Source of the DNA: [Synechococcus] sp. NIES-970
GTDB taxonomy: Bacteria > Cyanobacteriota > Cyanobacteriia > Cyanobacteriales > MRBY01
Direction of reading: 5' to 3'
Length of the DNA stretch: 64,000 bases
Assembly: GCA_002356215.1 (NCBI GenBank)
Contig: AP017959.1
Span: 2,744,195-2,808,194 of the forward strand
The position numbers and the translations under genes are program-made. The notes beneath the pieces are model-generated. The model was not told where the DNA came from and did no database searches. It saw only the letters and a list, made by a program, of their open reading frames with translations. This document shows positions 5,593-57,171 of the stretch, piece by piece (position 1 is the stretch's first letter; each line of letters starts with the position of its first letter).

Positions 5593-5649
5593 CAAAAATT
5601 GATCCGTCTTGGTCACAATGGTTGAAGTCGGTTTGAGCAAGGCGATCGC

Positions 5650-20800: not shown

Positions 20801-21925
20801 CGCAACGAAATTACCACTACCAAAGTCCCCTACCAATTCCCGTAGGGATGCTTCATCGGCATTTTCTAGCCAAGCCAAACTTGGATCATCTGGTTCCGGC
20901 CAGTTTATTAGTTCCGTGGCTATTTCTTCTTTCTCTAGGGAAAGTGATGGGGCGATCGCCTCTAACCGATCATCAGCGGCGATTATCCTAGTCATCTCTT
21001 CCTGGCTAACGTCAAATTCCCCTTGCTCAATTTCTAAAGGTGCCGTCTGTTCTGGTGATTCAGATACCTTAATCCTCACCTGCTTTCCTGGCGCTGGCGA
21101 AACCGACTCTGATTTTGGCTTTGATTCTTCCATTGGGTGTGACTTTTGTCGCCAGCCCGGATTGATCGGCACATGGTCCGGCAGGTGGGAAAGACGACCA
21201 ATCGTAACCAGAGCCTGGGTGCGTCGCCAAGTGGAAAGGGCTTCCTCTGCGTAATCTTTAAGATGTTCCGGCGCAATCATAGGTAGATTTTCAATAACCC
21301 CCTGACAGAGGTTCATAAAAATCTCCAATTCACTCATGCGGCCAAAATCAGTCAACTGCTCCGCCATCGCGATGAGTTCTGGCCCGATATCGTCAGGAGC
21401 AAGGCTGGCTAATTGTTGATCAAAATAATCTAAGCTTTCTTCTACTCCACCCGCGAAGATAATCATTGAAATATCAACATCTTCTTCCTGGGCTAATAGA
21501 GCATTTTCATCTTCTTCCCTAAGATCCCCGAGATCTTGACGGAGATAATCAAAGATAGGATCAATCTTCTGGGCCATCCATTCATCAGTAATCTTCTTTC
21601 CCTGCCGATGGAGATTCGTTACCACCCGCAGGGCGTCAACACTTTTCAGCAAAAGTGTTTCAACACGGCTCGTGACCAATTTCGGATCCTGTCGCACCCG
21701 CAAAATTTTGAAATAATCCTCCATGCGGTGGGCGATCTTACTGAGAGGTTTAAAGCCCATCATGGCGGCTCCCCCCTTAACGGAATGGGCCGCCCGCATT
21801 GCTGCATCCATTTTGCCGATATCGAGTCCGGAAGCCGCTAGCTCCAGCAAAATAGCTTCGATGTTATCGAAATACTCTTCTACTTCTTCCAAAAAATTAA
21901 GACGTACCTGTTGCTCTGTATCCAT
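17885..21925 (-). CDS. pilL: CheA-type hybrid histidine kinase with receiver (PilL/PixL type)
   Basis: 1346 residues. Order: Hpt domain with phosphorylatable His47 (AAHSVKGGAAMMG), a second helical region, a long acidic/Pro-rich linker (about 265-650), dimerisation helices (about 670-760), HATPase (from about 890: DPLNHLLRNAFDHGIEDP, DDGGGIDP, GRGVGMDVVKT), CheW-like domain (about 1045-1190) and C-terminal REC (about 1208-1325; DDS, CDIEMPRLDG, Lys in SKPY). It would autophosphorylate from a ternary MCP/CheW complex and pass phosphate to its own REC and the CheY proteins. Last gene of the first chemosensory operon, 267 bases after the MCP gene. Confidence 0.9.
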   Translation of the reverse strand: MDTEQQVRLNFLEEVEEYFDNIEAILLELAASGLDIGKMDAAMRAAHSVKGGAAMMGFKPLSKIAHRMEDYFKILRVRQDPKLVTSRVETLLLKSVDALRVVTNLHRQGKKITDEWMAQKIDPIFDYLRQDLGDLREEDENALLAQEEDVDISMIIFAGGVEESLDYFDQQLASLAPDDIGPELIAMAEQLTDFGRMSELEIFMNLCQGVIENLPMIAPEHLKDYAEEALSTWRRTQALVTIGRLSHLPDHVPINPGWRQKSHPMEESKPKSESVSPAPGKQVRIKVSESPEQTAPLEIEQGEFDVSQEEMTRIIAADDRLEAIAPSLSLEKEEIATELINWPEPDDPSLAWLENADEASLRELVGDFGSGNFVAENPPESGPVEALEMSPEQDQNQEMVIQSSLDPDHPPEIQAGPPNVAQVREAMVIANQELTNAFIANHLGRLSLERARKAFSQVNQQLMLTEDFLGQDLLDNIALEDVAIAMQQSILDHHEADQTLEEPSKSPNRTAVSFTIQEEDSPALPHPEVIAKGDVPPLPEVQPQSQAEDVSPEPIFAENVSPAVEIPEVMSLDDISLDDIDLKDFSLEALSFAESPFLATEQAATEKDHPNLQQTDLSIAKDTVPQWEEEPVATIPPTPPREVETPPLPALDLNSTTVHLPDPAKEFSALSKSTVRVPVQQLQKLNTLFGKLIVERNAINLRLSQMRNFVALMNSRMAQLEQSNSQLRRWYDRASMEGLMTEQGENKNHDPGSDLSGHNPFATNLGDAPERDRLQHQFDSLEMDRYSDLHVLSQEQMESIVQLQEVAADIDLSLREINAATNDLNYTTRALQSGMTRTQMRPFSTIVNRFPRVMRDLSMQYGKKVNLKIEGETTLIDRVALEALTDPLNHLLRNAFDHGIEDPETRLINGKPIEGNIILRAMHRGNQTIITIQDDGGGIDPNKIRIRLRKLGIPEHDIQQMRDVDLFNMIFEPGFSTAERVSELSGRGVGMDVVKTNLKDLRGEIRVDTQLGHGTTFTIEIPLSVSILRVMIVETAHRVMAIPIDSIRAMISIRPEDLTNRNDQEFFVWEGQAVELIRAEKWLQFNHHSRPFEMEGTATISQPTALIVGHGQAVRSLHIDRFWGEQEISIAPVQSPIPLPPGFTSACIMGDGRVIPLVDPFKLLEWIHIQQTGAILQERQDAVSAKLRELSQPEATVQAVIKPQQQLPTILIIDDSINVRRYLALTLEKAGYQVEQAKDGQEAIDKLLGGLEVEAIICDIEMPRLDGYGVLSDLRSRAEYESLPITMLTSRMSEKHRKLAFNLGASAYFSKPYNEQELLQTLHQLIEGVKGGQDKADHPSPALETV

Positions 21926-22192
21926 GGCTCGAAATCTCAGTAGGGCTTTATGATGTCAAAATGATCGGCAAAAGAACTTGGGGTTCAGTCAAGATTGCCG
22001 AATCTCTCCAGACCAGTGAAAAACATTTACATGTTCAAAAATTCTTAAAACAAGATGGCTGGCGGCATAAGCAGGACACTTTCATAGAAACAGAACCTTA
22101 GTTTTATATTTGCTGCCAAACTGCCTAGGGCCATTGCCGCCCATATGTTGAGGAAGAGGGACTTCAAGAAAAAGCCCCCGACTTGCCAGAAT

Positions 22193-24661
22193 TTAGACCT
22201 TGAACTGTTCTACAGATGCTTTTAGTTTTTGAGCAACCTCTGCAGTAGAGTGCATTGCTTCAGCCACTTCACGGGAAGACGAAGAACGCAACTCCGATGC
22301 AAATGCCATTTGGTTCATTACTTTCGTAACGCCCTGGGCGGTTTCTGCCTGGGCCGTTGTACTGGCCGAAATAGACTGCATCAACTGGTCAATTTCTTGA
22401 GAACGCTCTAGTACCTCTGCCAGACGTTCTTTTGTTGTTTCCACAAGGTTGGTACTGTCGACCACCTGGGCTGTACCTGTTTCCATGGCTGCCACAAGTT
22501 CTTGGGTTTCTGATTGAATGCTCGTGACAATCTTGCTGATTTCTTTTGTTGCAGCGGCTGACTGTTCAGCGAGGGCCCCCACCTGTTCTGCAACCGCCGT
22601 GAAGCCTTGACCTAGTTCTCCAGCCCGCGCGGCTTCAACACTGGCATTAATCGAGAGGAGGTTTGTTTTTAGGGCTAATTCATCAATCAAGGCAACCACC
22701 TGGGAAATCTTTTGGGCAGACTCCCCTAAGCGCTTCATTTTTTTCGCGGTATCGCCAATGGTCGCCCGCAGACCTTGAATACTTTCTACCGTCTGGTTCA
22801 TCACTTGGTTACCTGCTTGAACCGTGGTAAATGCAGTGTTTGAGATCGCGGAAGCTTGAATCGCGTTTTTGGCCACCTCTTCGATGGACTGGGACATGGA
22901 TTTGACCGAGTCTAGGGATTTTTGCACCTCAAGGGCTTCATGAATCGCCTCCTCTGCGAGGGAGCGGATCGCCGCTTCATTTTCGGTGAGGGAGCCGGTC
23001 ACTTGTCCCGAAGACTTTTTAACTTCTTTTGCAATGTCATGGAGATTTTCAATAACAGCATTGAATAGGTCAGCAACGATCCCGACTTCCCCAGCCATTA
23101 ACTGAGCACGAACGGTGAGGTCTCCATCAACGGCACCTTCAATGTTCGACATGAGACTTTCAACTTCACTTTCTAGTTCTTCGCGTCGTTGTTGTTGTTC
23201 TTCGGCAATGATTTTTTGTTCTTTAATTAATTGGTTGACCTTCGTCAGGAGGTTGTTAAAGCTATAACCAAGGGTCAAGGTTTCGATGGTGCCCTGTTCT
23301 TCGGCCACAACGTCTAGATTACCGGCTGCCACTTGCTCTGCAGTAACGGATAGGGAAGCGAGCGGCTTGGATAGCTGTCGAGCCAAAAGGATGAGAATGC
23401 CCACTGCAGCTCCACCCAGAACTAGGCCAGTCGCACTAAACACTTTAAGGAGGTCACGACCTGCGGTGTTGATCTCTTCGGCGTTCATGGAGGCGATCGC
23501 CACCCAAGGGACGTTGGGGATGGTAGAAATACTAAAATCTTTATCTCCGAGCTCAAATGTGACTTCAATGAATTTCCCTGTAGTAGACTCAAAACTTTCT
23601 ACTTCCACTCTATGAATCTCGGGATATTTGTTTTCTAATGTTGTCTTGATTGCTTCATCGGACTGGCTACCATCTTCCACCACAGCATTCATATCCCGCG
23701 CCATTTGGAGAATGTTCTCTCCCCCGACCACTGAGTCAAGTTCTGCCGTTAGTTCTGCTTCACTGAGGCCCGAATCCGTCGGCTGAATCGTATCAAGAAC
23801 AGTCCCCGCATCTGGGTCAATGAGCTGAACCCGTTGGCTTTTATATAGATCTTTTTCGATGAAATCCCGCACCCTGTCATGGAGAGTTGCAGAGCTAACT
23901 TTGACTTCGACTATCCCTAGAAACTCTTCCGTGCCTGGTGCAAGAATAGAACGGGCAATCCCTAAGCGTTTCTCACCAGTAGCTTCGTCTAGCACGGTTT
24001 CTTCCACTGCCACCCCATTTGCTTGGGCGTCTTGCCACCAGTCTTCTGCCGAATGGACAAAAGTATCAGGTTGCGTATCAGAGGCAACATTAAACCCATA
24101 GCGATTGGTCACCAGGAGAGATTGAAGACCTGATTGTGCAGAGATGTTTTTGAGGTAATTGTTGAGGTTGGTATTAGGTTGCAAAAATCGAGTCGCACTA
24201 AACTGAGCTTCTAAACGATCCTGTGGTAACTGCGTGAGCTTTTGCTCGGCGACAACGGCCTCACTACTGCGCAAGGCTTGGGTAATCTGGGGATCCACAG
24301 CCAGTAAACCAGGCACTTTCATCAGGTCATTCACAAAGTTTGCTGTTGCCTCAGAAGCCAAGAAAGAATCTTCCTGGAGAAGATTGATCACGTCTGCCTT
24401 TGCTTTGTCTGATACAACTTTGTACCCAATGGCCGATGCCAGGATTAGGGGAGTTAAGACCGTAGGCATAACCGTGACTAGCAGACGCCGACTCAAGGGG
24501 CCTGCCTGACGCCGCTTTTTCGCTGGGCTGCCGCCAGGGCTATGCTTGCCAAAAAATCCTTGGGCAGATTCAGTCTTTTTTGCCGCTGGCCCCTCAGAGG
24601 CTAAGCTTGTATCTTCAAACCGTAGGCCGGCATCATTGGGAAAATTTTCTGCAATAGTCAT
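22193..24661 (-). CDS. pilJ: Membrane methyl-accepting chemotaxis protein, PilJ-like
   Basis: 822 residues. A basic cytoplasmic N-terminus (about 1-59) precedes TM1 (about 60-82), a large periplasmic sensor resembling dCache (about 85-405), TM2 (about 408-430), HAMP (about 430-480), a second HAMP-like stretch and the MCP signalling hairpin (about 560-820) with the conserved tip region LIDELALKTNLLSINASVEAARAGE. The periplasmic domain, not GAF domains, would bind the signal. Same operon as CheW (upstream) and CheA (downstream). PilJ in Synechocystis is needed for pilus assembly and motility; the same role here is inferred. Confidence 0.88.
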   Translation of the reverse strand: MTIAENFPNDAGLRFEDTSLASEGPAAKKTESAQGFFGKHSPGGSPAKKRRQAGPLSRRLLVTVMPTVLTPLILASAIGYKVVSDKAKADVINLLQEDSFLASEATANFVNDLMKVPGLLAVDPQITQALRSSEAVVAEQKLTQLPQDRLEAQFSATRFLQPNTNLNNYLKNISAQSGLQSLLVTNRYGFNVASDTQPDTFVHSAEDWWQDAQANGVAVEETVLDEATGEKRLGIARSILAPGTEEFLGIVEVKVSSATLHDRVRDFIEKDLYKSQRVQLIDPDAGTVLDTIQPTDSGLSEAELTAELDSVVGGENILQMARDMNAVVEDGSQSDEAIKTTLENKYPEIHRVEVESFESTTGKFIEVTFELGDKDFSISTIPNVPWVAIASMNAEEINTAGRDLLKVFSATGLVLGGAAVGILILLARQLSKPLASLSVTAEQVAAGNLDVVAEEQGTIETLTLGYSFNNLLTKVNQLIKEQKIIAEEQQQRREELESEVESLMSNIEGAVDGDLTVRAQLMAGEVGIVADLFNAVIENLHDIAKEVKKSSGQVTGSLTENEAAIRSLAEEAIHEALEVQKSLDSVKSMSQSIEEVAKNAIQASAISNTAFTTVQAGNQVMNQTVESIQGLRATIGDTAKKMKRLGESAQKISQVVALIDELALKTNLLSINASVEAARAGELGQGFTAVAEQVGALAEQSAAATKEISKIVTSIQSETQELVAAMETGTAQVVDSTNLVETTKERLAEVLERSQEIDQLMQSISASTTAQAETAQGVTKVMNQMAFASELRSSSSREVAEAMHSTAEVAQKLKASVEQFKV

Positions 24662-24835
24662 GGTTCTGGCATCCTAATAAAGTTACGGAATGGATCGGCA
24701 AGCGCAAATTAAAAAGACAAATGGCGTCACTGAACCAGTGTTTGTCACACGATTCAGCGATAGGGGTAGCGTCAAAATCGACGCATACCCAGTGAACTTA
24801 TGGGGTTTAAAAAACGATGAAAATATTTAAAGATC

Positions 24836-24865
24836 CCTCATCCTCCTAAATCCGGAGGAATGAGG
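24836..24865 (-). other. RNA hairpin in the cheW-MCP gap
   Basis: CCTCATCCTCC (24836-24846) can pair with GGAGGAATGAGG (24854-24865) with one bulge and a 7-base loop. It begins 7 bases after the cheW stop codon in the direction of transcription and is followed by GATCTTTAAATATTTTC. It could act as a partial terminator or an mRNA stability element that tunes MCP level against CheW. Confidence 0.55.
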
Positions 24866-24871
24866 AACGGA

Positions 24872-25480
24872 TTAACTGCTCACGGCATACCCGGGCATAG
24901 CAAGGATTTTGGCAGTGGCGATCGCCTGGACATCTAATACAGGGATACTCTGCCCATCTTGAACAAAACATCCCTTCAGATAAGGAGTCAATTCCTCACT
25001 AAACTCTTCAATAGGAGAAGCGATCTCCTCAGCATTCAGACGAATGACCCCTTGAATTGCATGCACCACTAATCCCAACAAACTGGTATCTTCATCGGTT
25101 TGGTTCAGATAGACGTCTTGGGCCTGGCTGATGGCAGATTGCCGCACTGTGACCACAGGATAGTATTGCCGGTTAGCCGTTGTGGCCGGCAGTTGCAGCA
25201 TCTGTGCTAGATCAACCACGAAAAAGACTTGATTGCGGGAGTTCATAAAACCAACCACACAGTCTGGCATGTTCGGGATCGGCGTGACGAGGCGCGTCGG
25301 TACCCTGAGGGCTTCATGAACATACTCCAACGAAATCAAACCAGACTGCTGCGGAGAGAATTCAAACTTTAGATAGCGATCGCCCGTTTTCTCTTCCGGC
25401 TGAAAAAGCTGCGGTAAAAGTCGCTGTAGCCTTACTGTCGTCGAAGCAAGATCAGTGGCTATCGGTGTAGTGCCGCCCAT
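24872..25480 (-). CDS. pilI: CheW-like coupling protein (PilI type)
   Basis: 202 residues from ATG 25480 (MGGTTPIATDLASTTVRL), which leaves 4 bases after the preceding cheY stop. A start at 25531 would overlap cheY by 47 bases and is less likely. The CheW fold is visible in LKFEFSPQQSGLISLEYVHEAL, TPIPNMPDCVVGFMNSRNQVFFVVDLAQML and GLVVHAIQGVIRL. It is longer than E. coli CheW (167) because of an N-terminal extension. It would link the MCP to the CheA-type kinase. Confidence 0.85.
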   Translation of the reverse strand: MGGTTPIATDLASTTVRLQRLLPQLFQPEEKTGDRYLKFEFSPQQSGLISLEYVHEALRVPTRLVTPIPNMPDCVVGFMNSRNQVFFVVDLAQMLQLPATTANRQYYPVVTVRQSAISQAQDVYLNQTDEDTSLLGLVVHAIQGVIRLNAEEIASPIEEFSEELTPYLKGCFVQDGQSIPVLDVQAIATAKILAMPGYAVSS

Positions 25481-25484
25481 GGGT

Positions 25485-25847
25485 TTAGCCTGCCACAGAT
25501 TTGATGGCCTCGAGTAAATCGGCTTTCTCACAAGGTTTTGTGAGATAAATATTTACTCCTTGTTTAATTGCCCAATTGCGGTCCATCTTGCCATCTTTTG
25601 TGGTGCAGGCAATGATCGGGATATTGGCCGTAGTATCATCCTTTTTCAACTTGCGGCACATATCCAAACCACTCATGTCCGGCATCACCAGATCAGTGAC
25701 AATCACATCGGGCTTTTGTGTCCCAATCTTTTCTAACGCATCTGCAGCACTAACTGCCGTCATCACCTGGTGACCACCCTGGGAAACATAATTACTGAGC
25801 AACTGCAGCTCAGTGGGCAAATCATCGATTACGAGTACTTTACTCAT
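25485..25847 (-). CDS. CheY-like response regulator, second of a tandem pair (PilH-like)
   Basis: 120 residues from ATG 25847, a single receiver domain: acidic pair DD (VLVIDDLPTELQLL), phospho-acceptor Asp in VIVTDLVMPDMSGLDMC, switch Thr in IIACTTKDG and Lys in YLTKPCEKADLL. No output domain, so it must act by protein contact, probably with pilus motor components as PilH does. It is closely similar to the CheY encoded just upstream (25901-26272), a clear tandem duplication. The 53-base gap shows no obvious terminator. Confidence 0.9.
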   Translation of the reverse strand: MSKVLVIDDLPTELQLLSNYVSQGGHQVMTAVSAADALEKIGTQKPDVIVTDLVMPDMSGLDMCRKLKKDDTTANIPIIACTTKDGKMDRNWAIKQGVNIYLTKPCEKADLLEAIKSVAG

Positions 25848-25900
25848 GGTTTTAATCCTTTGGGTAAAAATCAAACAAGAAGCTTTTAAAAAACAAAAAA

Positions 25901-26272
25901 CTAAGCCATCAGTAGAACAACAGAGGCCACTGCATCCAGTAGCTGCTGTTGATCGCAGGGCTTAACAAGATAGACAGAAATACCCTGACGCTTGGCCCAT
26001 TCCTGATCTACCTGACGACTTTTTGTCGTACAAGCAATCACAGGAATCTTTGCTGTTTCTGGGTTTTTCTTGAGCTTACGACACAATTCCAAACCACTCA
26101 TGTCTGGCATTACTAAATCTGTGACAATCACATCTGGAATTTTCTCGGCAACCTTTTGGAGGGCTTCTTCACCACTGCCTGCACCGATCACCTGATGACC
26201 TCCCTGAATCAGATAAGTGCTGATGAGTTGCAATTCAGACTGAATATCATCGACAACCAATACTGTACTCAT
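25901..26272 (-). CDS. pilH: CheY-like response regulator, first of a tandem pair
   Basis: 123 residues, receiver domain only: VLVVDDIQSELQLI, phospho-acceptor Asp in VIVTDLVMPDMSGLELC, IACTTKSRQ and YLVKPCDQQQLL. The block PDVIVTDLVMPDMSGL is identical in the neighbouring CheY. A short hydrophobic C-terminus (SVVLLMA) distinguishes it. It follows the PATAN-REC gene by 74 bases on the same strand. Confidence 0.9.
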   Translation of the reverse strand: MSTVLVVDDIQSELQLISTYLIQGGHQVIGAGSGEEALQKVAEKIPDVIVTDLVMPDMSGLELCRKLKKNPETAKIPVIACTTKSRQVDQEWAKRQGISVYLVKPCDQQQLLDAVASVVLLMA

Positions 26273-26346
26273 TGCATTAATTCCTTACGACTTATAAACC
26301 GTTTAATTTCATTCAGAAAGAGAAAGAATTGAACTTAACCAGTCAA

Positions 26347-27567
26347 CTATTTCACATATTTTTCAACGATAGACAGCAGACTTCCCCGAGTAAAAGGCTT
26401 AGTCAAATAGTCTGAAGCCCCTACCAATTTAGCCCGTGCTTTATCCACAAACCCAGTTCGTCCGGTGACCATTACAATCGGCGTTTCTCTTAAGGCCACA
26501 CTATTTTTTAGAAGACTACAAAGTTTATAGCCATTGATCTCCGGCATTGTAATATCCATGAGGATTAGATCCGGCTTTAAACGAAATAAAATAGAAGCTG
26601 CTTTAATTGGATCTTCAATTTTTGTAACTTCATATTCATCCGCATCTAAAAAACGGTGCATTTCGTTCAAGATAGTTGGACTATCATCAACACAAGCGAT
26701 TTTGTAAACTTTGGTCGGCCGTACCCGAGTTTGAACGGGTGCTTGCTTGACCACCTGTGGGACAGTCGGCAAGTGGTTGAAGGGTTCTTTTGGTGCCCCT
26801 AAAAACACGTTCCCTTTTTGGACATAGGGATAAAGTAGTTTGGCTACCACCATTTCATCCTGATTGAGTAACAAAGCAATCTCTCGAATGCTAAAGCCAC
26901 GCAGGATTTTTTTGAGCTTTTCTAAAGCAGGTGAGATTGAGGTATTGGCAGATTGCTCATGGGAAAAAAGATAGGGCCTCTCATAGGGAGACTTAATCAG
27001 CTCGTTGACCTCCTGCCAAGCTTCAGTGCGCTGCTTAAAATGTTGAATAATTTGCTCTAGGTTTAAATTGATCTCCAGTTCAGGATCCCAAGGGAGCTGG
27101 AAATCTGCTTGAACCCACTGGTAATGGGCTTCCATTAACCATAAAAAAGATTCGATCGCCTCCTTGGTTAAATTTTCTAAAAGACGGGTCATTTGGATGA
27201 GATTTAAATGACCTTCTTGGCGGTACCAATCCATCGCACGACTCATAACATGGATGGGCTTGAGATTATCAGCGGCTTCAAGTACCACTGTATTCGCTTG
27301 AGGAAGCATCTTTAAGGCTGCAGGAGATGCTTTTAATCCAAGGCAATGAAAATGATAATCAAAGGACTGTAATGATTGAACAGAGCTGTAAGCGTAGGTA
27401 ATACCGCCATTTTTGAAGTATATCTGCCAACCGATACCGTCATGAAAAGCATTGACATAGCCGCTGCCTGAGGTGCTGGCAACCTGTCGTAGGATTTCCT
27501 GTGGATTTCCTACTAACTGATACTCTGCCAAACTATTTTCTGTGTTAATTTTTTGCTTAGTAGACAT
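26347..27567 (-). CDS. pilG: PATAN-REC response regulator (PilG/PatA-like)
   Basis: 406 residues. The N-terminal about 270 residues form the PATAN/DUF4388-type region (LRQVASTSGSGYVNAFHDGIGWQIYFKNGGITYAYSS pattern at the start). A receiver domain begins at about 286 (CVDDSPTILNEMHRFL), with phospho-acceptor Asp in LILMDITMPEINGYKLC and Lys in YLTKPFTRGSLL. PATAN regulators in Synechocystis control the direction and activity of pilus-based motility. First gene of the operon; its leader is the AT-rich gap that starts at 27568. Confidence 0.87.
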   Translation of the reverse strand: MSTKQKINTENSLAEYQLVGNPQEILRQVASTSGSGYVNAFHDGIGWQIYFKNGGITYAYSSVQSLQSFDYHFHCLGLKASPAALKMLPQANTVVLEAADNLKPIHVMSRAMDWYRQEGHLNLIQMTRLLENLTKEAIESFLWLMEAHYQWVQADFQLPWDPELEINLNLEQIIQHFKQRTEAWQEVNELIKSPYERPYLFSHEQSANTSISPALEKLKKILRGFSIREIALLLNQDEMVVAKLLYPYVQKGNVFLGAPKEPFNHLPTVPQVVKQAPVQTRVRPTKVYKIACVDDSPTILNEMHRFLDADEYEVTKIEDPIKAASILFRLKPDLILMDITMPEINGYKLCSLLKNSVALRETPIVMVTGRTGFVDKARAKLVGASDYLTKPFTRGSLLSIVEKYVK

Positions 27568-47185: not shown

Positions 47186-48376
47186 ATGACTGCTGCCGGC
47201 AATACGCTCAATCTCATCGCCGATCAACTCAACCACCTCTGCCAAACTAGGGCAACAGGTGAGCTGATCGTGGGGAATAGTCAATACCAGGGACATATTC
47301 ATCTCCTGTCGGGGCGTCTTCTCCATGCCACCGCAGGGATCCACTCCACCCGCCGTTGGAACCGCATCACCCAGCGACTCGCCCCCCAATGGAGGCCGAA
47401 TCCCCAGGAGCTCAACAGTCCCCACATGTGGGAATACCAACTCCTCTACCAGGGGATTACGACGAAACAATTAACAGTAATGCAGGCGAAGGCGATCATT
47501 CGGGCGATCGCCCAAGAAGTCTTCTTCGATCTCGGTTGTTACCCCGATGCCAAGGTCGAATGGAACGAAAACCAAAAAAACGCCACAGAAATTGCCCTGA
47601 GCTTGTCCCTGTCCTATCTGGAAGTAGAACCCGACCTTAACCGCGTCACACAGCTCCAACAACAATGGCAGGCCGCTGGATTAGGGAACCTAAGCCCCAC
47701 CCTAGCACCAGTGCTCAAGCCCGGCATTGACCCCAGTGCCCTCGGCGTTTTGGGTCAATATCTCAACGGCGAATTTTCCATGTGGGATATTTCCATGCGC
47801 CTGGGTAAATCCGTTAATAGCGTTGCCAATGCCCTGATCCCTCTCCTTAAAAAACGCATTGTTCAACTCAAAAAAATTGCGGATCTCCCCCATCCCCTCG
47901 CCAGCACCGACAGTTCTGCTGGTAACAATAACCAAGCCAATGGCAGCGTGAGTCCGAAAAAACGAGATGCCCTCATTGCCTGCATCGATGACAGCCCCGT
48001 TATCCTCCAGACCCTCCGAAAAATTCTTGAAAGTGCAGGTTATCGGACCATTGGCATCAGTGAACCCATGCGGGGGGTTGCCAAACTTATCGAAAGCCAA
48101 CCAGATATCATCATCCTCGATCTGGTCATGCCCAACGCCAGTGGCTACAGCGTTTGCAAATTCCTGCGGCAAACCTCTGTCTTTGAGAAAACTCCCATTA
48201 TCGTGCTGACCAGTCGCGACACCCTAATCGATCGCAACCGAGCGAAGTTGGTGGGCGCTTCTGACTTTCTGGGGAAACCTCCAGATCCAGAAAAAACCAT
48301 TGCCCTGATCGAAAGATACCTCGATGAAGTGGGCGAACAAGGTAGTGATTCTGCCAAGCTTCAAACAAAAACCTAA
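47186..48376 (+). CDS. pixG: PATAN-REC response regulator (PixG-like), first gene of the Pix-type operon
   Basis: 396 residues. N-terminal PATAN/DUF4388-like region (about 1-240), starting ADQLNHLCQTRATGELIVGNSQYQGHIHLLSGRLLHA. A linker rich in Asn/Ser (about 240-258) leads to a receiver domain (about 262-380): CIDDSPVILQTL, phospho-acceptor Asp in IIILDLVMPNASGYSVC, TSRDTLIDRNRAKLVGASDFLGKP. The C-terminal tail is hydrophilic. By analogy with Synechocystis PixG it would act on the type IV pilus machinery. It lacks a visible ribosome site of its own. Confidence 0.87.
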   Translation: MTAAGNTLNLIADQLNHLCQTRATGELIVGNSQYQGHIHLLSGRLLHATAGIHSTRRWNRITQRLAPQWRPNPQELNSPHMWEYQLLYQGITTKQLTVMQAKAIIRAIAQEVFFDLGCYPDAKVEWNENQKNATEIALSLSLSYLEVEPDLNRVTQLQQQWQAAGLGNLSPTLAPVLKPGIDPSALGVLGQYLNGEFSMWDISMRLGKSVNSVANALIPLLKKRIVQLKKIADLPHPLASTDSSAGNNNQANGSVSPKKRDALIACIDDSPVILQTLRKILESAGYRTIGISEPMRGVAKLIESQPDIIILDLVMPNASGYSVCKFLRQTSVFEKTPIIVLTSRDTLIDRNRAKLVGASDFLGKPPDPEKTIALIERYLDEVGEQGSDSAKLQTKT

Positions 48377-48484: not shown

Positions 48485-48847
48485 ATGGCAACGCTATTAC
48501 TTGTTGAAGACAGTCCGACTGAAGCACAAATCATTACGAGTTGTTTAGAAAATGCCGGATTTAGCCTTTTAAAGGTCACTACTGCTGAGGCGGCGAAAGC
48601 AATTTTAGATCAAAAAATGATTGATGGAATTGTGTTAGATGTTGTGTTGCCGGGTCAAAGTGGATTTGGTTTTTGCCGGGAGGTTAAAAATGATCCAAAA
48701 ACTAAAGATATTCCTGTGATTATGTGTTCCAGTAAGTCTGAAAAAATGGATAAAAAATGGGCTAGTAAACAAGGTGCAAATGATTATGTTACCAAACCTA
48801 TTGACCAAAACGAACTGTTAAATGCCGTTCGACGTTGGGTTCATTAG
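48485..48847 (+). CDS. pixH: CheY-like response regulator (PixH-like)
   Basis: 120 residues, receiver only: LLLVEDSPTEAQII (acidic pair Glu-Asp), phospho-acceptor Asp in GIVLDVVLPGQSGFGFC, switch Ser in IMCSSKSEKMDKKWASKQGANDYVTKP. Codon use is AT-rich relative to its neighbours. The operon junction downstream holds a hairpin (48858-48893). It has 108 bases of leader after the PATAN-REC gene, with AGAGG six bases before the ATG. Confidence 0.9.
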   Translation: MATLLLVEDSPTEAQIITSCLENAGFSLLKVTTAEAAKAILDQKMIDGIVLDVVLPGQSGFGFCREVKNDPKTKDIPVIMCSSKSEKMDKKWASKQGANDYVTKPIDQNELLNAVRRWVH

Positions 48848-48857
48848 GGAAGCCTGT

Positions 48858-48893
48858 GACTGACCTGAGTTTGATTTTTGATTGTGGTCAGTC
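48858..48893 (+). other. Terminator-like hairpin between pixH-like and cheW genes
   Basis: GACTGACC (48858-48865) pairs with GGTCAGTC (48886-48893) around a 20-base loop, then TTTAAACTTTC. It is inside the operon, so it may reduce, rather than stop, transcription of the downstream genes. Confidence 0.55.
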
Positions 48894-48932
48894 TTTAAAC
48901 TTTCTTCTGCCCCATTACCTGAAGGATTTTCT

Positions 48933-49424
48933 ATGACCGCCAATTCCCCCGCCATCGAAGGAACCACAACTCAGTATATTAGCTTCCTGCTATCCAATGG
49001 TTTAAGGGGCATGCTTCCTACCAGTCAATTGGTAGAAACCATCAATCTGGACTTGGGCAATATTGTCCAAATTCCTGATTTACCTCCTGTGGTGGTGGGG
49101 GTCTGCGGTTGGCGGGGTGAGGTGCTGTGGTTGCTGGATTTGGCCTATGCCCTGCGATCGCCACCGCTCCTTTCGGGGGACTATGCCGATGCAAAATGTA
49201 GTGTTCTCAGGGTCAATGTCAACAAACAAACCTTCGGTATTGTGGTCACAGAAGTGCAACAGCTGATCCGTTGCGATCGCCAAAATATTTCCCCAGAACT
49301 TCCTCCACAAATTGACCCAGATGTTGCCCCATTGGTAGCAGGAAAATTTCGACAACCCTCCGGTGAAATCATCCTCAACATCAACCTTGAAGCCCTTCTT
49401 GAGAGTATTAAACAGCCTGCTTAA
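48933..49424 (+). CDS. pixI: CheW-like coupling protein (PixI-like)
   Basis: 163 residues from ATG 48933 (MTANSPAIEGTTTQYISFLL); the frame opens at 48882 but the extra 17 residues include the hairpin downstream and look non-coding. CheW core: GMLPTSQLVETINLDLGNIVQIPDLPPVVVGVCGWRGEVLWLLDLAYAL and FGIVVTEVQQLIRCDRQNI. It would link the GAF-MCP to the CheA-type kinase. Confidence 0.85.
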   Translation: MTANSPAIEGTTTQYISFLLSNGLRGMLPTSQLVETINLDLGNIVQIPDLPPVVVGVCGWRGEVLWLLDLAYALRSPPLLSGDYADAKCSVLRVNVNKQTFGIVVTEVQQLIRCDRQNISPELPPQIDPDVAPLVAGKFRQPSGEIILNINLEALLESIKQPA

Positions 49425-49520: not shown

Positions 49521-52500
49521 ATGACTCAAGCGCCTATCCGACCCAACAATCCCCAGAATAACAACCTCGATACCCAGACCTTCAGACATGACCGCAAAGA
49601 GCGGCCCATCGAAGAAACAGTCACCATTGTGCCCGTCCAATCGACCAATGCCAATCATTCCACATTGACCTCAAAAGCGGGGACCTTGGTCAATGAACTG
49701 AGTAGCCTCCGGTCAAACATCGACATGATGACAGAGGAACTCCAGTCCCTCTTGGCGACAGAGCGGGCAGCGGTAGAGCGGGCCGAACTCTTGAACGCGA
49801 TGACTTCCCACATTCGCGAATCTTTGAGTTTCGAATATATCCTCAACGCCACAGTTTCAGATGCCCGCAATGCCCTGGATGTAGATCGGGTTGTGATCTA
49901 TGTTTTTGATGACCCAGACTGGCTTGGGAAAGTTGCGTATGAATCGGTGGAACGCCGTTGGCCCAGTGCCCTGGGGACGGCTTATTCTCTGATCGGCTTA
50001 TCAGATCATGCCATTAAGCTTTTTCAGCAGGGCCGGGTAGAAACGATTGATCACATTGACCATGCAGCGACTGCCGATGGCACTCAACTCGATCAACTAC
50101 GCCAACTGGAAGTACAGGCCAGCCTAACTGCGCCCCTCCTCCTCGAAGGCAACTTATATGGTCTATTGGTGGCACATCAGTGTTCGATGGCCCGCCAGTG
50201 GTCGGAGTCGGAGGTGGAATTTTTCCGGCAATTGGCTGTGCAGGTAGGCTATGCCCTCGACCAAGCCCAATTGTTAGACCAGCAACGAACAGCGGCAGAA
50301 CAGGCCCAGTGGCTTAATCAGATCAGTGCCCAAATTCGAGAAGCAGGGAGCCCCGAGGATATTTTTGCGGCGGTAGTGCAAGAGCTCCATAATGCCCTCA
50401 AAGCAGATCGGGTGGTGGTTTACCGTCTCGGGGAAGGGACTGAGGGGGGCCAGGTCATTGCTGAGTCCATTGAACGACAGCTCCCCAGTATCATGGGCAT
50501 GGGCTTAAACGCTCCTTGGTTGGATGCCAGCCACCAAGAGGCTTACTTACGGGGCCAATTAAATGCTGTCGAAGATATTTATGATGCCAACCTCGATGAA
50601 ACAGTCCTCAATCATCTAAAGGGAAAGGGTATTCGGGCCAGTGCGATCGCCCCGATTATCAGTCGTCAAAAACTCATGGGCTTTTTGATGGTGCACCAAT
50701 GTTCCCTGCCCCGGCGGTGGTCAGACAGTGATCTCGAAATTTTACGCCAGGCAGCGACCCAGGTCGGCACATCCTTAGATCAAGTTTTTGCCCTCCAGCA
50801 ACAGGAAACTGCCGCTCTCCAAGCCCAGATTCTCAATGAATTGTCTTCCCGGTTAGGGAGCTTTAGTGACGTTGAAGAAATCATTGAAACCGTGGTTGAC
50901 GACGCCCGAGAAGCCCTTAATGCCGATCGCGTTTTGATTTTCCGGATCAGCTCCCAGGATAAAGTGATGGCGATCGCCGAATCCGCCGATCCCCGCTGGA
51001 AAAGCCTCACAGGCAAGAGCCTCCAAGACTGCGGTTTAGACGAGCGCTATCTGAAACAAGCCCAAAGGGGAAAACTCACCACCATCAATCGCCTCGGGGA
51101 TGCAGGTTTTAGTAACACCCAACTCGAAGCCCTCGAATCTGCCCAAGTGCGTTCTCTCATGATTGCCCCAATCACCATTGAGCGGAATCTTTTTGGGCTG
51201 ATGGTGGTACATAGCTGTCAGGGGTCACGACTGTGGCAAGACATTGACAGCAACCTCCTGCGGCAGATTACGAACCAAGTCAACTTTGCCCTAGAACGCA
51301 TCAGCCTCATTGAACAGCGGCAAATGACTGCGGAACGAGCCCAGCGCCTCAGTGATATTAGTGCCCGTCTTCAGGAATCCTTAGAGGTAAAAGAAATTTT
51401 GGGGGCGGCCGTAGAAGAAACCAGAGAAATTCTTGCTGCTGACCGGGCCATTGTTTACCGCCTCGACCAAAACTGGCGCGGTCTAATCAACGCCGAATCC
51501 GTTGTGCCCGGATTTGAATCAATCCTCGGCCTCAAGACCAATGAACCCCGGGTTACTGAAAAATTTGCCAAGTCCTACATCCGCGGTAAGGTGACGGCCT
51601 TCGCCAATATCTACGAAGCAGACTTTATCGATTGTCATATCAAAGAGTTTGAATCCCATGCTGTCAAAGGCTACATGGCGGTAGGCATCGTCGCCAACCA
51701 AAAGCTCTACGGAATGTTGATCGTCCATCAATGTTCTGGGCCGCGCCAGTGGAGTGACACCGAAATTAATACCCTCAAGCAGATTGCCCAACAGATTGGT
51801 TATGTCCTTGAGCAGGCTTTCCTTAAAGAAGAACAGGAACGGGCCAAACGGTTGAATGAAACTCGGCTCCGTCTCCAGGAAGCGTCTGAGGTGGAAGCAA
51901 TTCTCAACGTGGCCGTGGAGGAAGCCCGTACTCTACTGGGCACAGACCGGGCAATTGTCTATGAATTTGACTCCTCCTGGAAAGGAGTAATCACAGCAGA
52001 ATCTTTGGCCCAGGGTTATCCAGCTACCCTCGGAATCCGCACCAATGAGCCCCACGTCACTGAAAAATTATCCAAGGGTTATCAAAAGGGCAAAATTTTG
52101 GCGATCGCCGATATTTTTAACTCCGATTTTGCTGATTGCCACGTGAATGAATTCTCCCCCTATGGCGTCAAGGGCTATATGGCAGCAGGCATCAATGCCA
52201 ACCAACGGCTTTATGGCCTTTTGATTGTCCATCAATGCTCCAGTACCCGCCCTTGGACAGACGTCGAAATCGACACCCTGCGTCAACTGTCAGAACAGGT
52301 CGGTTATGCCCTAGACCAAGCCCTCCTCCGTAAGGAACAAGAACAGGCGATCACCCGGACACGGCAGGTGAACTTGATCAGTTTCCGGATCCGCGAATCC
52401 CTTGACCTAGAAAGGATTTTCCGGACTGGGGTGGAAGAAGCCCTGAAACTCATGGCCTGCGATCGCGTCGTGGTTTATCGCTTTGACGACAACTGGGATG

Positions 52501-53909
52501 GCCGCATTAAATATGAAGCGGTTAAATCCGGTTGGCGCAAACTCAGTGAAGACATGCTCACTTCTGGAGATACCCCTTGTTTCCCCGAAGACTATGTGGA
52601 GCCCTACCGCCAAGGCCGGGTTCAGGTGACCCCCGATGTTTCCCAAGCAGGCCTCACCGCTTGCCACGAAGAACAGCTCGGAAAATGGCAGGTAAAGGCT
52701 AACGTGGTTGTACCGATTTTGGTGAACCAGAAACTCTATGGTCTGCTGGGGGCGCACCAATGTGCCTCGACCCGGGAATGGGAAGCCCCCCTAGTAGAAT
52801 CCTTCCGTCAGGTGGCGATCCAGTTGGGTTATGCCCTAGACCAAGCCCTCCTCCTAGAAGAGGTAGAAGCCTCCCGTCGCCAGGCAGAAGCTGTTTCCGA
52901 AGAGCAGCGCCAACAACGGGAACAGCTCCAAGGGCAAATTGAAAACTTCCTCGAAGAAATTGAAGACTCCTTTGAAGGAGATTTAACGGTCCGGGCCGAT
53001 GTCACCCAGGGAGAAATGGGAACCGTTGCTGACTTTTTCAACGCCACCCTAGAAAATCTCCAGATTCTGGTGCAACGGGTTCAGGAATCCTCGACCATTG
53101 TGTCGGATACAGCCCAGGAAAGCGAATCTTTGATTCAAAACCTCTCGGCTGAGGCCCTCCGCCAAGCAGAAAGTGTAAATGCAGCCCTTGGTAAGCTTTC
53201 GAGTATGACCGCTTCGATTCAGGAAGTGGCCAGCAATGCCCAGGAAGCCCAGGCGAAGGTGCAGCTAGCAAACCAAACACTCCAGTCCGGCGATGTGGCC
53301 ATGAACCGCACTGTACAAGGGATTGTCGCTATTCAGCAAACCGTAGAAGCCACAGCCCGAAAAGTGAAAAACCTGGCTGATTCTTCCCAGAAAATTTCAC
53401 GGGTGCTCAACCTCATTCGGGAACTGGCCAATCAAACCAACTTACTTGCCTTGAATGCTTCGGTAGAAGCAACCCGGGCTGGGGAAGAGGAACAGGGCTT
53501 TGCGGTGGCGAACGAAGTCCGGACCCTTGCGGAGCAGTCCGCAAACGCCACCAAGGAAATTGAAGAGATCATCGAAGAAATTCAAGCAGAAACGAACGAG
53601 GTGATCAAAGCAATGGACATTGGCCGGAAGCGGGTATTGATTGGAACGAAATTAGTGAAAGGGACGCGTCAAGCACTGACGGATCTAGCCAAGGTTAGTA
53701 TGAGTATTAACCGCACAGTTGAACAGATTGCGAATTCAGCATCTAGCCAAGTGGCTATCTCCAATGAGCTAAACCAAACGATGCAGGATGTGGCGAGTAT
53801 TTCAAGCCAGACTTCTTCCCAATCGGTCAAAGTGGCGGAATCTTTCACTAAACTGCTTGGAGTTGCGGGAGAACTGCAACAGAGTGTGTCCCGGTTTAAG
53901 GTGAAATAA
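49521..53909 (+). CDS. pixJ: Soluble MCP with six GAF domains, three of them cyanobacteriochrome-like (PixJ type)
   Basis: 1462 residues, no membrane segment. Order: hydrophilic N-terminus, coiled coil (about 50-95), six GAF domains (roughly 95-250, 270-425, 440-600, 620-785, 790-945, 965-1125), a HAMP-like stretch (about 1140-1190) and an MCP signalling hairpin (about 1200-1460) with [25 protein letters not shown] at the tip. GAF4, GAF5 and GAF6 carry the bilin-binding Cys-His pair: Cys705-His706, Cys873-His874 and Cys1048-His1049. GAF6 also has Cys1020 in TPCF, 28 residues before Cys1048, as in DXCF-type PixJ photoreceptors. GAF1-3 lack the Cys. It should sense light and drive the adjacent CheA. 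Confidence 0.88.
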
Positions 53910-53959: not shown

Positions 53960-54024
53960 CCGGACATACACAATAAGAACACTATCTTTTTACACATCGG
54001 TTGATTAGGGGACCACATCAGATA

Positions 54025-57000
54025 ATGGCTAGGGAAACTGTTGATACCAACGATCAAGCCTACGAATTCTTTGTGCAGGAAGCACAGGAGCTCTTACAGC
54101 ACCTCGAATCTGGTTTGATGACCCTTTCCCAGGATCATGAGACCCCAAAAATCCACGGCTTGATGCGGGCAGCCCATTCCATTAAGGGAGGGGCTGCCTG
54201 TGTAGGGTTGATGGCAATCCAGTCCATTGCCCACGACCTAGAAAATGGTATTCGTGCCCTCTATAAAGAAGATACGGTGTTCGATGTGGAACTGGAAAAT
54301 CTCCTGCTTCAGGCCTATGATGCGCTTCAGGAGCCGATTAATCAACAAATTCACCAGGGAGTCTATGACCCCGACCATGCCATTGAGCGGGCCAAGCCAA
54401 TCTTTGGTCAATTAGAACAAAAGCTAGGTCATGCCCTTGACGAGGCAGCAGAATTACCCGAGATGCAGATGGAGGGAGACATCACGGAATTTATTTTCAA
54501 AGAAGAAGTCCCCCAGGCCCTCGGCCGCCTCGAAAACTATGTCAAAAATCCTCCCAGTAAAAACCCGAAGGGGGAGCTTGCCTCACAAATTGAAGTGTTA
54601 GCGACCCTCGGCGATATGTTGAACTTAGAAGGTTTTGCGGCAATTGCTCAAGCTGCTAACGAAGCCCTCAAGGTCAATGAAGCGCAATACGTGCAAATTG
54701 CACGGTTGGCCCTCGCTGATTTTAAGGCAGGTCAAGCCGCGGTGCTCGATGGCGATCGCAGCCAGGGAGGGGAGCCCAGCGAAGCCCTTCTCCAACTAAC
54801 CCAGGCGGGGGATCCCAGTGCTGTGCTTTCGATGCCAGCACAGGAAGAACCATTCCTCAATGAAGCCGAAATTGCCTCCCTGGTTACCTTTGGAGAGTCT
54901 GATAATGACACTGGTGATTTTGATAATAGTTTGTCTCTAGATCCAGATGAATTGGCCGCCCTAGAATTTTTGACCCAAGACGCGACCACAGAAACGCCCA
55001 TTTTGAGTGAAGCGGATTTGGCGGGATTAATCATCGAAGATGAAGCAAGTGACGATGCTGAAGCTGCCCCGGTAGATCTCGCCAGCTTTGTGATGATGGC
55101 AGAAGAAGAGCCCATTGCGGCGATCGCCGCCACTCCCAGTCCCCCAGCACCTAGCCCCGTCGCACCACCGTCCTCTGCCCCTGCGTCTATTCCGGCCCCG
55201 GAACCAGCTAAAAAAATAGCGGCCCCCGCAGAAACTGTCGTGCCGATGCCTGCCACGGCTGCCGCCAGTCCGGCCCTGCCCACCATCGATACCAGTACCT
55301 TGAGTGTCCGCTTAGAAATGGGCCGCCTCAACCACCTCAATAACCTGGTAGGAGAACTGGTCACCCAAGATAACAGTGCCTTACTCCGCAACAAGCAAAG
55401 CAGTGATGCTTTGAGTTCTCTCAAGCGATGGTATAACCGTTTCAACAAAATTACAGGCCAATTTCAGCAATATGCAAAGGAATTGATCATTAAAAATCCC
55501 CAGGCTCGGGTTCAACTGGCCCAGTTTGTTATTTTTGCCTCCACCATGACGGAGGAAATGGCCCAACTCAGTGAGACCATCGAAGATACGACTCTCATTG
55601 CCCAGCAGGATCAGCAAGCCCTCAAGCAGCGTCAACAAACCCTCAAGCAACTCGAAAATAACCTCCTCCAGGCCCGCATGCTGCCCATTGGGGATTTGTT
55701 AAATCGCTTTCCCCGGACAGTCCGAGACCTCTCGATCAAGGGTAACAAGCCTGTGACTCTCAATCTGGAGGGGACCAATACATTAGTTGACCGGGCGGTG
55801 CTCTCTAAGCTCTACGATCCCTTAGTACATTTAGTCCGTAACGCCTTTGACCATGGTATTGACTCCCCGGAAGAGCGTCTCGCCAGCAACAAATCTGAAG
55901 AAGGAACCATTACGATTAAGGCCTATAACCGGGGGAACTCCACCTACGTAGAAATCAAAGATAATGGTCGGGGCATCAATATTGACAAGGTGCGAGAAAA
56001 AGCGGTGCGCCGCGGTTTAGTCAGTCCCTCGGAAGCAGCAGCCCTGACCGATGCCCAAATTTATGAGCTGTTATTTGTGCCGGGCTTTTCGACGGCGGAT
56101 AAGGTGAGCCATTTGTCTGGCCGCGGGGTAGGCCTCGATGCGGTACGCCTGCAAATTCGCGCCCTGAAGGGAAATATTTCCCTCACTTCAACACCGAATA
56201 AGGGGACGACTTTTACCCTCCGGTTGCCCTGGAGCATGACGATCACAAAATTATTAATCTTCCGGTGGCAGGAAAGTTTCTTTGCGATTCCGGTCAATAG
56301 TTTGTCGGCGATCGCCGCTGCCAGCAAACAGGATCTCCTCATGAAGGACAATCAAGAACAGTTCCGCTGGCAGGGCCAGAGCGTTCCCCTCGTCCAAACT
56401 CTCCTGAATCGATTTAACTATCCTGCCTCGATTATTGCTAGTCGCCAACAGATGGGAGCCCTCGCCCAAAGTAGTGCCAGTAATGTTTGGAATCAGGCGG
56501 GTCAGCAAATGATTCTCGTGATTACCCAGGGAACCGAAGCGGTTGGGCTGCGGGTAGACCAAATTTTGTTGGAACAGGATCTCGTGATCAAACCTTTCAG
56601 CACGGCGATCGCCCCACCAACTTATATGTCTGGTTGCACAATTTTGGGAGATGGCCGCCTTGTCCCTGTTCTAGATGGAGCCGCTTTGATAGAACGAGTT
56701 CTCCAAAAAGACAGCCAAAATGTGGCAATTATCGACACCCAATTGCAAAATCTCCAGCCGAAATTAGCTCTACCCACGGTGCTCGCCATCGATGATTCCC
56801 TGACCACAAGGCAAACCCTCTCGACGACTCTCCAAAAGGCAGGCTACCGTGTCATCCAAGCCCAAGATGGTGCCGATGGCCTCAATCAACTGGAGTTGCA
56901 CCCAGAGGTAGAAGGGGTTATTTGTGATGTGGAAATGCCCCAGATGAATGGTTTTGAATTTCTTGGGCGCTGTCGGAAAAAACATCCGAAAACAGACCTG

Positions 57001-57171
57001 CCAGTGTTGATGTTGACGTCTCGCGGCAGCAAGCGTTACCGACAGTTGGCACAACAATTAGGGGCTAATGGCTACTTGACGAAGCCTTATTTGGATCAAG
57101 AACTCATTGAAACCCTGCAACAGGCTGTGGCCGAAACAAAAGCCCAACAAAAGGCGATCGCCAGCCCTTAG
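54025..57171 (+). CDS. pixL: CheA-type hybrid histidine kinase with receiver (PixL-like)
   Basis: 1048 residues from ATG 54025 (MARETVDTN); a TTG at 54001 would add eight. Order: Hpt with His51 (AAHSIKGGAACVG), second helical domain (about 150-235), acidic and Ala/Pro-rich linker (about 235-430), dimerisation helices (about 430-590), HATPase (from about 599: DPLVHLVRNAFDHGIDSP, DNGRGIN, GRGVGLDAV), CheW-like domain (about 740-880) and REC (about 919-1035, phospho-acceptor in VICDVEMPQMNGFEF, TKPY). It is shorter than the first operon's kinase mainly in the linker. It ends 2 bases from the convergent DUF3318 gene. Confidence 0.9.
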   Translation: MARETVDTNDQAYEFFVQEAQELLQHLESGLMTLSQDHETPKIHGLMRAAHSIKGGAACVGLMAIQSIAHDLENGIRALYKEDTVFDVELENLLLQAYDALQEPINQQIHQGVYDPDHAIERAKPIFGQLEQKLGHALDEAAELPEMQMEGDITEFIFKEEVPQALGRLENYVKNPPSKNPKGELASQIEVLATLGDMLNLEGFAAIAQAANEALKVNEAQYVQIARLALADFKAGQAAVLDGDRSQGGEPSEALLQLTQAGDPSAVLSMPAQEEPFLNEAEIASLVTFGESDNDTGDFDNSLSLDPDELAALEFLTQDATTETPILSEADLAGLIIEDEASDDAEAAPVDLASFVMMAEEEPIAAIAATPSPPAPSPVAPPSSAPASIPAPEPAKKIAAPAETVVPMPATAAASPALPTIDTSTLSVRLEMGRLNHLNNLVGELVTQDNSALLRNKQSSDALSSLKRWYNRFNKITGQFQQYAKELIIKNPQARVQLAQFVIFASTMTEEMAQLSETIEDTTLIAQQDQQALKQRQQTLKQLENNLLQARMLPIGDLLNRFPRTVRDLSIKGNKPVTLNLEGTNTLVDRAVLSKLYDPLVHLVRNAFDHGIDSPEERLASNKSEEGTITIKAYNRGNSTYVEIKDNGRGINIDKVREKAVRRGLVSPSEAAALTDAQIYELLFVPGFSTADKVSHLSGRGVGLDAVRLQIRALKGNISLTSTPNKGTTFTLRLPWSMTITKLLIFRWQESFFAIPVNSLSAIAAASKQDLLMKDNQEQFRWQGQSVPLVQTLLNRFNYPASIIASRQQMGALAQSSASNVWNQAGQQMILVITQGTEAVGLRVDQILLEQDLVIKPFSTAIAPPTYMSGCTILGDGRLVPVLDGAALIERVLQKDSQNVAIIDTQLQNLQPKLALPTVLAIDDSLTTRQTLSTTLQKAGYRVIQAQDGADGLNQLELHPEVEGVICDVEMPQMNGFEFLGRCRKKHPKTDLPVLMLTSRGSKRYRQLAQQLGANGYLTKPYLDQELIETLQQAVAETKAQQKAIASP

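What the first reader, a model, noticed from the sequence alone, without database searches (positions are those of the whole stretch)
51633..52142. GAF4 and GAF5 of the PixJ-like MCP carry the bilin-binding Cys-His but not the DXCF cysteine
Cys705-His706 and Cys873-His874 sit in (D)CHxxxF at the canonical chromophore position. At the position of the second DXCF cysteine, GAF4 has EPRV and GAF5 EPHV. This NEPxV pair looks like one duplicated module and might define a distinct spectral class.
Basis: partly seen in the sequence, partly recalled or inferred. Interest (0 to 1): 0.7.

Follow-up and report, generated by a model that had tools for sequence, protein, structure and literature searches.

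The report
PixJ GAF pair missing its second cysteine
Two neighbouring light-sensing (GAF) domains in a cyanobacterial phototaxis-type receptor kept the cysteine that normally holds the pigment but lost, early in this genus, the second cysteine and the usual pigment-facing aspartate, so they probably see a different colour from their ancestors; this is a new local variant of a known photoreceptor family, not a new kind.

Summary
In the 1462-aa PixJ-like MCP (49521-53909 +), GAF4 and GAF5 carry Cys705-His706 and Cys873-His874, and EPRV/EPHV where DXCF cyanobacteriochromes (CBCRs) have DPCF. The window is from a Picosynechococcus-type cyanobacterium. All six genomes of its family carry the pair; the NEPxVTEK DNA pattern found no other coding match in 391 genomes of the order. 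GAF4 and GAF5 are sister domains (56% identical; 100/100 support) nested among dual-Cys DXCF GAFs of orthologous PixJ proteins in another family. Grouping them with red/green (XRG) CBCRs is rejected (AU p = 0.0008). So this is an independent, lineage-specific loss of the second Cys. Cys-His survives in 11 of 12 domains. Most likely: covalent bilin binding by one thioether and a colour response without the dual-Cys blue state. Binding, bilin type and colour are untested, and a partly decayed domain is a live rival: one relative's GAF4 has already lost the His and the EPxV motif.

The parts
49521..53909 (+). PixJ-like MCP, 1462 aa: six GAF domains and an MCP signalling domain, no predicted transmembrane helix
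   Evidence: ORF; Pfam GAF x6 and MCPsignal; highest 19-residue hydropathy 1.4
51336..51848 (+). GAF4 (aa 606-776): canonical Cys-His, no DXCF Cys
   Evidence: AF2 model mean pLDDT 89.5, pTM 0.86; TePixJ fold Z 24.0
51540..51563 (+). GAF4 NEPRVTEK: Glu675 at the TePixJ Asp492 position, Arg677 at the Cys494 position, Val678 at Phe495
   Evidence: alignment columns; codons vary synonymously across species
51633..51638 (+). GAF4 Cys705-His706, predicted bilin attachment site in the helix equivalent to TePixJ alpha-4
51645..51647 (+). GAF4 Glu709 (TePixJ Gln526 position)
51672..51674 (+). GAF4 Tyr718 (TePixJ Asn535 position)
51840..52352 (+). GAF5 (aa 774-944): tandem sister of GAF4
   Evidence: 56% identity to GAF4; tree support 100/100
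52044..52067 (+). GAF5 NEPHVTEK: Glu843, His845, Val846 at the Asp492, Cys494, Phe495 positions
52137..52142 (+). GAF5 Cys873-His874, predicted bilin attachment site
52149..52151 (+). GAF5 Glu877 (TePixJ Gln526 position)
52176..52178 (+). GAF5 Tyr886 (TePixJ Asn535 position)
52329..52866 (+). GAF6: dual-Cys domain (DTPCF, Cys1020; ACH, Cys1048), the conserved photosensor of the array
   Evidence: 138 bits to TePixJ; 94% mean identity between species; 35 of 36 core DXCF positions kept
49785..51320 (+). GAF1-GAF3 (approximate): lost both cysteines
47186..48376 (+). pixG-like response regulator (DUF4388/PATAN plus receiver)
   Evidence: Pfam; synteny
48485..48847 (+). pixH-like CheY response regulator
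   Evidence: Pfam
48882..49424 (+). pixI-like CheW
   Evidence: Pfam
54001..57171 (+). pixL-like CheA hybrid kinase (Hpt, HATPase, CheW, receiver)
   Evidence: Pfam

Best explanation
GAF4 and GAF5 are single-Cys cyanobacteriochrome domains derived from dual-Cys DXCF domains of an ancestral PixJ array. Shown by sequence: the DXCF Cys was lost and the facing Asp became Glu on the stem of this lineage; the domain was duplicated in tandem; the Cys-His attachment site is kept under purifying selection. Inferred: each binds a bilin (PCB, perhaps isomerised to PVB) by one thioether at Cys705 or Cys873. Light flips the 15,16 double bond. With no second Cys there is no reversible C10 thioether, so neither photostate is the blue dual-Cys form. 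I expect absorption in the green to orange-red range, with the Glu and the Tyr and Glu replacements resetting the hydrogen bonds to the pyrrole nitrogens and ring D. The domain motion passes through the helical linkers to GAF6 (still dual-Cys, expected to see violet or blue) and the MCP tip, which controls the PixL kinase and the PixG/PixH regulators of type IV pili. The array would thus compare two or more colours.
For: Cys-His at the canonical place in 11 of 12 domains from six species while synonymous sites are near saturation and omega is about 0.01-0.11 where computable. GAF1-3 of the same protein lost both Cys, so keeping them is not automatic. In the exception (G434 GAF4) the His after Cys, the HQC His, and the EPxV motif changed together, as expected if they serve one pocket. 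Nesting in DXCF: 97/92 with the PixJ GAFs g1-g4 of family f7, and the same placement with the motif columns masked, SH-aLRT 91. XRG grouping rejected, AU p 0.00076. The f7 orthologues, in the same pixGHIJL-type gene order, have mostly DPCF plus CH in g1-g4. The GAF4 model matches TePixJ at Z 24.0, rmsd 2.0, 149 residues. D492, Q526 and N535 are bilin neighbours in TePixJ (PMC6955287). The single-Cys PPHK, the nearest solved sequence, has a green state at 562 nm (PMC11480761). PcyA is present in the genome, as are type II/IV secretion ATPases of the PilB/PilT kind.
Against: No biochemical data. 11 of 36 core DXCF positions are lost, most of them around the pocket, and many of the same positions are also lost in the Cys-less GAF1-3 (overlap 5-8 positions; for GAF2 7 of 12, P 0.016), so the changes are also what partial decay would look like. 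In one species GAF4 looks degenerate. The Asp that contacts pyrrole nitrogens is near-universal in bilin-binding CBCR GAFs, and its loss could cost binding or photochemistry.
Confidence: 0.62

Rival explanations
1. GAF4 and GAF5 no longer bind bilin. They are remnants of photosensory domains that, like GAF1-3, now serve as spacer, dimerisation or signal-transmission modules; Cys-His is a leftover or has another role.
For: Overlap of lost core positions with the Cys-less GAF1-3; loss of the conserved Asp and of Asn535 and Pro539; G434 GAF4 has already lost the His and EPxV.
Against: Cys-His is retained in 11 of 12 domains, and four or five of the five signature residues in all 12, despite saturated synonymous change; GAF4 and GAF5 are more conserved (84% and 82% mean identity) than GAF1-3 (69-77%) in the same proteins; no other GAF in 312 has even three of the five signature residues, which random decay would not fix so uniformly in two paralogues.
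Confidence: 0.25
2. They are ordinary red/green (XRG-type) CBCRs that merely look unusual at the DXCF site.
For: Same Cys pattern; Tyr at the Asn535 position, as in many XRG domains.
Against: Tree 100/99 for XRG apart and AU p 0.00076 against joining; no WXDXXL motif; HQC instead of the XRG YQN; overlap of changed positions with XRG is no more than chance (P 0.08-0.13).
Confidence: 0.04
3. Covalent bilin is bound but the domains are photochemically silent or fluorescent, working as light collectors or locked domains rather than switches.
For: Non-photoconverting fluorescent CBCRs are known (PMC11284453); the residues that contact the bilin during photoconversion in TePixJ (D492, Q526, N535; PMC6955287) are all replaced.
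Against: No direct evidence; two conserved copies would be odd for a passive role.
Confidence: 0.09

Closest known systems
TePixJ GAF and DXCF dual-Cys CBCRs (Thermosynechococcus PixJ; PDB 3vv4, 4glq)
   Same: Same fold (Z 24.0), canonical Cys-His, HQC motif, MCP output; the pair descends from the DXCF lineage
   Different: No second Cys (Arg/His), Asp492 to Glu, Phe495 to Val, Gln526 to Glu, Asn535 to Tyr, Pro539 to Gly
PPHK GAF2 (dual sensor histidine kinase, PDB 6oap)
   Same: Nearest solved sequence for GAF4 (E 1.1e-29); single-Cys, CH, no DXCF Cys (EDQYF)
   Different: Keeps the conserved Asp and Asn535; different lineage in the tree; histidine kinase output
XRG red/green CBCRs (NpR6012g4, AnPixJg2, Slr1393g3)
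   Same: Single canonical Cys-His; XRG also arose by losing the DXCF Cys (PMC11284453); NpR6012g4 and AnPixJg2 have Tyr at the Asn535 position
   Different: Separate loss; keep Asp, WXDXXL and Tyr in YQN; joining rejected
RcaE-type green/red CBCR (PDB 8k9o, 7ckv)
   Same: A Glu, not Asp, lies next to the pyrrole nitrogen in RcaE (PMC11480761)
   Different: In the ungapped alignment to 8k9o the only nearby RcaE Glu (PQEVF) falls one residue later than the NEPxV Glu; the Cys region was not aligned here
CXDXXL XRG domains and AM1_6305g1 (PMC11284453)
   Same: Precedent for PVB formation, and for green/teal photocycles, without a working second Cys
   Different: CXDXXL domains keep the Asp and belong to XRG; AM1_6305g1 is a DXCF domain whose Cys is present but dispensable

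Membership tests
Cyanobacteriochrome (CBCR) GAF | GAF fold of the phytochrome/CBCR type | tested here: met
   AF2 pLDDT 89.5; TePixJ Z 24.0, AnPixJg2 Z 23.7
Cyanobacteriochrome (CBCR) GAF | Canonical Cys (with His) on helix alpha-4 | tested here: met
   Cys705-His706, Cys873-His874; 11 of 12 homologous domains
Cyanobacteriochrome (CBCR) GAF | Covalent bilin and photoconversion | not testable with these tools
   needs expression with PCB
Cyanobacteriochrome (CBCR) GAF | Conserved acidic residue facing the pyrrole nitrogens (Asp492 in TePixJ) | tested here: inconclusive
   Glu instead of Asp in all 12 domains; acidic but not Asp
DXCF dual-Cys CBCR | Second Cys in Asp-Xaa-Cys-Phe | tested here: not met
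   EPRV / EPHV; no other candidate Cys
DXCF dual-Cys CBCR | Descent from the DXCF lineage | tested here: met
   97/92 with PixJ DXCF GAFs; same placement with motif columns masked
XRG (red/green) CBCR | WXDXXL motif | tested here: not met
   TNEPxV
XRG (red/green) CBCR | Groups with XRG in a tree | tested here: not met
   AU p 0.00076
RcaE/CcaS green/red protochromic CBCR | Glu at the same column as the pyrrole-contacting Glu of RcaE | tested here: inconclusive
   Nearby RcaE Glu falls one column later in the ungapped alignment
pixGHIJL (tax1-type) phototaxis operon | Gene order PATAN response regulator, CheY, CheW, MCP with GAFs, CheA | tested here: met
   Pfam and synteny in relatives
pixGHIJL (tax1-type) phototaxis operon | Controls phototaxis through type IV pili | not testable with these tools
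   only PilB/PilT-type ATPases detected

The most novel reading that the evidence does not exclude
NEPxV GAFs are a separate, Picosynechococcus-group-restricted CBCR class in which Glu replaces the near-universal bilin-contacting Asp and the pocket is rebuilt around a single thioether, giving a photocycle (wavelengths or protonation behaviour) not seen in DXCF, XRG or green/red CBCRs.
Probability: 0.25. Interest if true: 0.65.

Novelty: new variant of a known kind. Interest (0 to 1): 0.4.

Why it matters
It is a phylogenetically placed, natural loss of the DXCF cysteine inside one orthologous receptor: DPCF relatives and EPxV descendants can be compared position by position. That makes testable how a dual-Cys blue/green-type sensor turns into a single-Cys sensor, whether Glu can replace the Asp that contacts the pyrrole nitrogens, and whether a tandem copy serves colour comparison. 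If bilin is bound it would also give small photoswitches from a tractable marine cyanobacterial group.

Tried and rejected
XRG membership: rejected by tree and AU test. Displaced second Cys elsewhere in the domain: none. A wider spread of NEPxV: the NEPxVTEK DNA pattern gave only genus hits plus three family-f4 hits that contain an in-frame TAG; a profile of the pair over 390 genomes of the class drops from 311-335 bits (own genus) to 179 bits and below, and none of the GAFs in the fetched top loci carries the signature. Exact one-to-one mapping of GAF4/5 to f7 g3 or g4: not resolved (AU p 0.40 for g4), although six GAFs against five fits one tandem duplication. Convergence with XRG pocket changes: no better than chance, dropped. 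Equating the NEPxV Glu with the RcaE Glu: off by one column in the only alignment obtained, so kept only as a loose parallel. No paper on a PixJ of this genus was found in the held library; one paper on protein-chromophore contacts in red/green CBCRs that might hold Asp mutants was not held. The genome-contig scan with the pair as query returned only two loci, both from the same group.

Full report
What is there. The ORF 49521-53909 (+) encodes a 1462-aa protein with six GAF domains and an MCP domain and no transmembrane segment by hydropathy. It sits in a pixG-H-I-J-L type cluster (PATAN/receiver, CheY, CheW, MCP, CheA). The genome is 3.12 Mb; the nearest named records are Picosynechococcus sp. 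PCC 7117 (87% in GAF4-5) and a Limnothrix sp. MAG.

Position of the motif. Aligned to TePixJ, whose two cysteines (494 and 522) are 28 residues apart, GAF4 and GAF5 have Cys705/Cys873 at the canonical position followed by His, and Arg677/His845 at the second-Cys position. DPCF has become EPRV/EPHV: the Pro is retained, the Asp is Glu, the Cys is Arg or His, and the Phe is Val. The only other cysteines are the common HQC ones.

Duplicated module. GAF4 and GAF5 are 56% identical; each is 30-36% identical to the other four GAFs. They are sister clades in the tree, 100/100. All six genomes of the family have the receptor. In five, both domains carry [ND]EPxVTEK and CH; in G434, GAF5 does but GAF4 has NEQLVGDK and CQ. 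Mean identity between species is 84% (GAF4) and 82% (GAF5), against 77, 69 and 76% for GAF1-3 and 94% for GAF6. Synonymous sites are near saturation, omega is about 0.01-0.11 where it can be computed, and the motif codons differ synonymously. So the motif and the Cys-His are under purifying selection.

Origin. GAF6-like domains identified orthologous five-GAF PixJ proteins in another family of the order, with the same neighbouring genes. Their upstream GAFs mostly read DPCF plus CH. A 91-row maximum-likelihood tree puts the NEPxV clade among g1-g4 of those proteins, 97/92, far from XRG domains, 100/99. The placement among g1-g4 holds with 63 alignment columns around the motifs masked (SH-aLRT 91), and joining NEPxV with XRG is rejected, p 0.00076. 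Hence the second Cys was lost within this lineage, on a long stem branch (0.81), independently of XRG. Six GAFs against five fits one tandem duplication; the exact source domain is unresolved.

A rebuilt pocket. In the first set of 249 domains, Glu at the Asp492 position occurs in all 22 NEPxV rows (near-duplicates included), in 2 of 142 dual-Cys rows and in none of 27 other canonical-Cys rows. NEPxV rows also have Val for Phe495, Glu for Gln526, Tyr for Asn535 and Gly (once Ala) for Pro539. In an enlarged set of 312 distinct GAFs, only the 12 NEPxV-clade domains have three or more of these five. Asp492, Gln526 and Asn535 are bilin neighbours in TePixJ crystals (PMC6955287), and the acidic residue at this place hydrogen-bonds a pyrrole nitrogen in AnPixJg2 (Asp92 of the construct; PMC11480761; by counting residues it is the Asp of WEDT in the alignment). 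Four related dual-Cys GAFs read SEPCF, so Asp-to-Glu occurs with both cysteines present.

Structure. An AlphaFold2 model of GAF4 (alignment of 61 window and locus domains) has pLDDT 89.5 and pTM 0.86, with Cys705 in helix 99-107 of the model. Best structural matches are CBCRs: TePixJ Z 24.0, AnPixJg2 Z 23.7, PPHK Z 23.4. This shows the fold, not bilin binding.

What it probably does. Shown: descent, loss of the second Cys, Asp-to-Glu, retention of Cys-His, operon context. Inferred: a bilin bound by one thioether, 15,16 photoisomerisation, no C10 adduct and so no blue dual-Cys state, and output through the MCP to PixL, PixG and PixH. The genome has a PcyA-type reductase and PilB/PilT-type ATPases. 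The nearest solved single-Cys domain, PPHK, has a green state at 562 nm, and domains without a working second Cys can still form PVB (PMC11284453), so I expect green to orange-red absorption, at low confidence for the exact colour.

Doubts. Eleven of 36 positions conserved in dual-Cys GAFs are lost in GAF4 and in GAF5, against 1 in GAF6 and 8-18 in GAF1-3. The lost positions overlap those of the Cys-less GAF1-3 as much as those of XRG, so partial decay remains plausible. G434 GAF4 shows that decay can happen. The reference set lacks many characterised CBCRs, so closeness to a lineage not sampled here (for example NpR3784) was not tested.

Comparison with the known. By fold and Cys-His the pair look like CBCR GAFs; by the Cys test they are not dual-Cys DXCF CBCRs although they descend from them; by motif and tree they are not XRG. 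The Glu recalls RcaE, but in the alignment obtained the nearby RcaE Glu is one column later. I file them as a new single-Cys variant inside the DXCF lineage. 'Spectral class' stays untested.

Noticed in passing
52563-52590 (GAF6): GAF6 reads SGDTPCF: its Asp is one residue further from the Cys than in DXCF, and the f7 orthologues have TEV(T/P)CF or similar. It is a very conserved dual-Cys domain (94% between species) with a displaced acidic residue.
   Followed up: partly
L091 complement 5491-6003 (G434 GAF4): The GAF4 orthologue in one same-genus genome has NEQLV, CQ instead of CH, and QQC instead of HQC, while its GAF5 is intact: a natural loss in progress.
   Followed up: partly
L137, L138, L144, L146, L147, L148, L150-L154, L156, L098: Another set of GAFs without DXCF Cys but with CH in other cyanobacterial families: DP-L, a one-residue gap where the Cys should be (for example INDPLG).
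   Followed up: no
L018-L021, L023-L026, L028, L080: GAFs with the second Cys (DPCI or DRCI) but Asp/Glu-His instead of the canonical Cys-His, resembling CBCRs without the canonical Cys.
   Followed up: no
L112, L114, L124, L128 (g3): Dual-Cys PixJ GAFs that read SEPCF, with Glu in place of the DXCF Asp.
   Followed up: partly
17885-27567 (-): A second taxis-type gene set on the other strand, named from sequence by eye: CheA-like hybrid (1346 aa), MCP with two hydrophobic stretches (822 aa), CheW-like (219 aa), response regulator (406 aa).
   Followed up: no
L072 g2, L118 g3 and other f7 PixJ loci: In f7 PixJ arrays single GAFs have lost both cysteines in some species (DVYF with PSY in L072 g2, DDSSF with ESD in L118 g3), so in those arrays loss tends to take both Cys, unlike GAF4/5.
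   Followed up: partly
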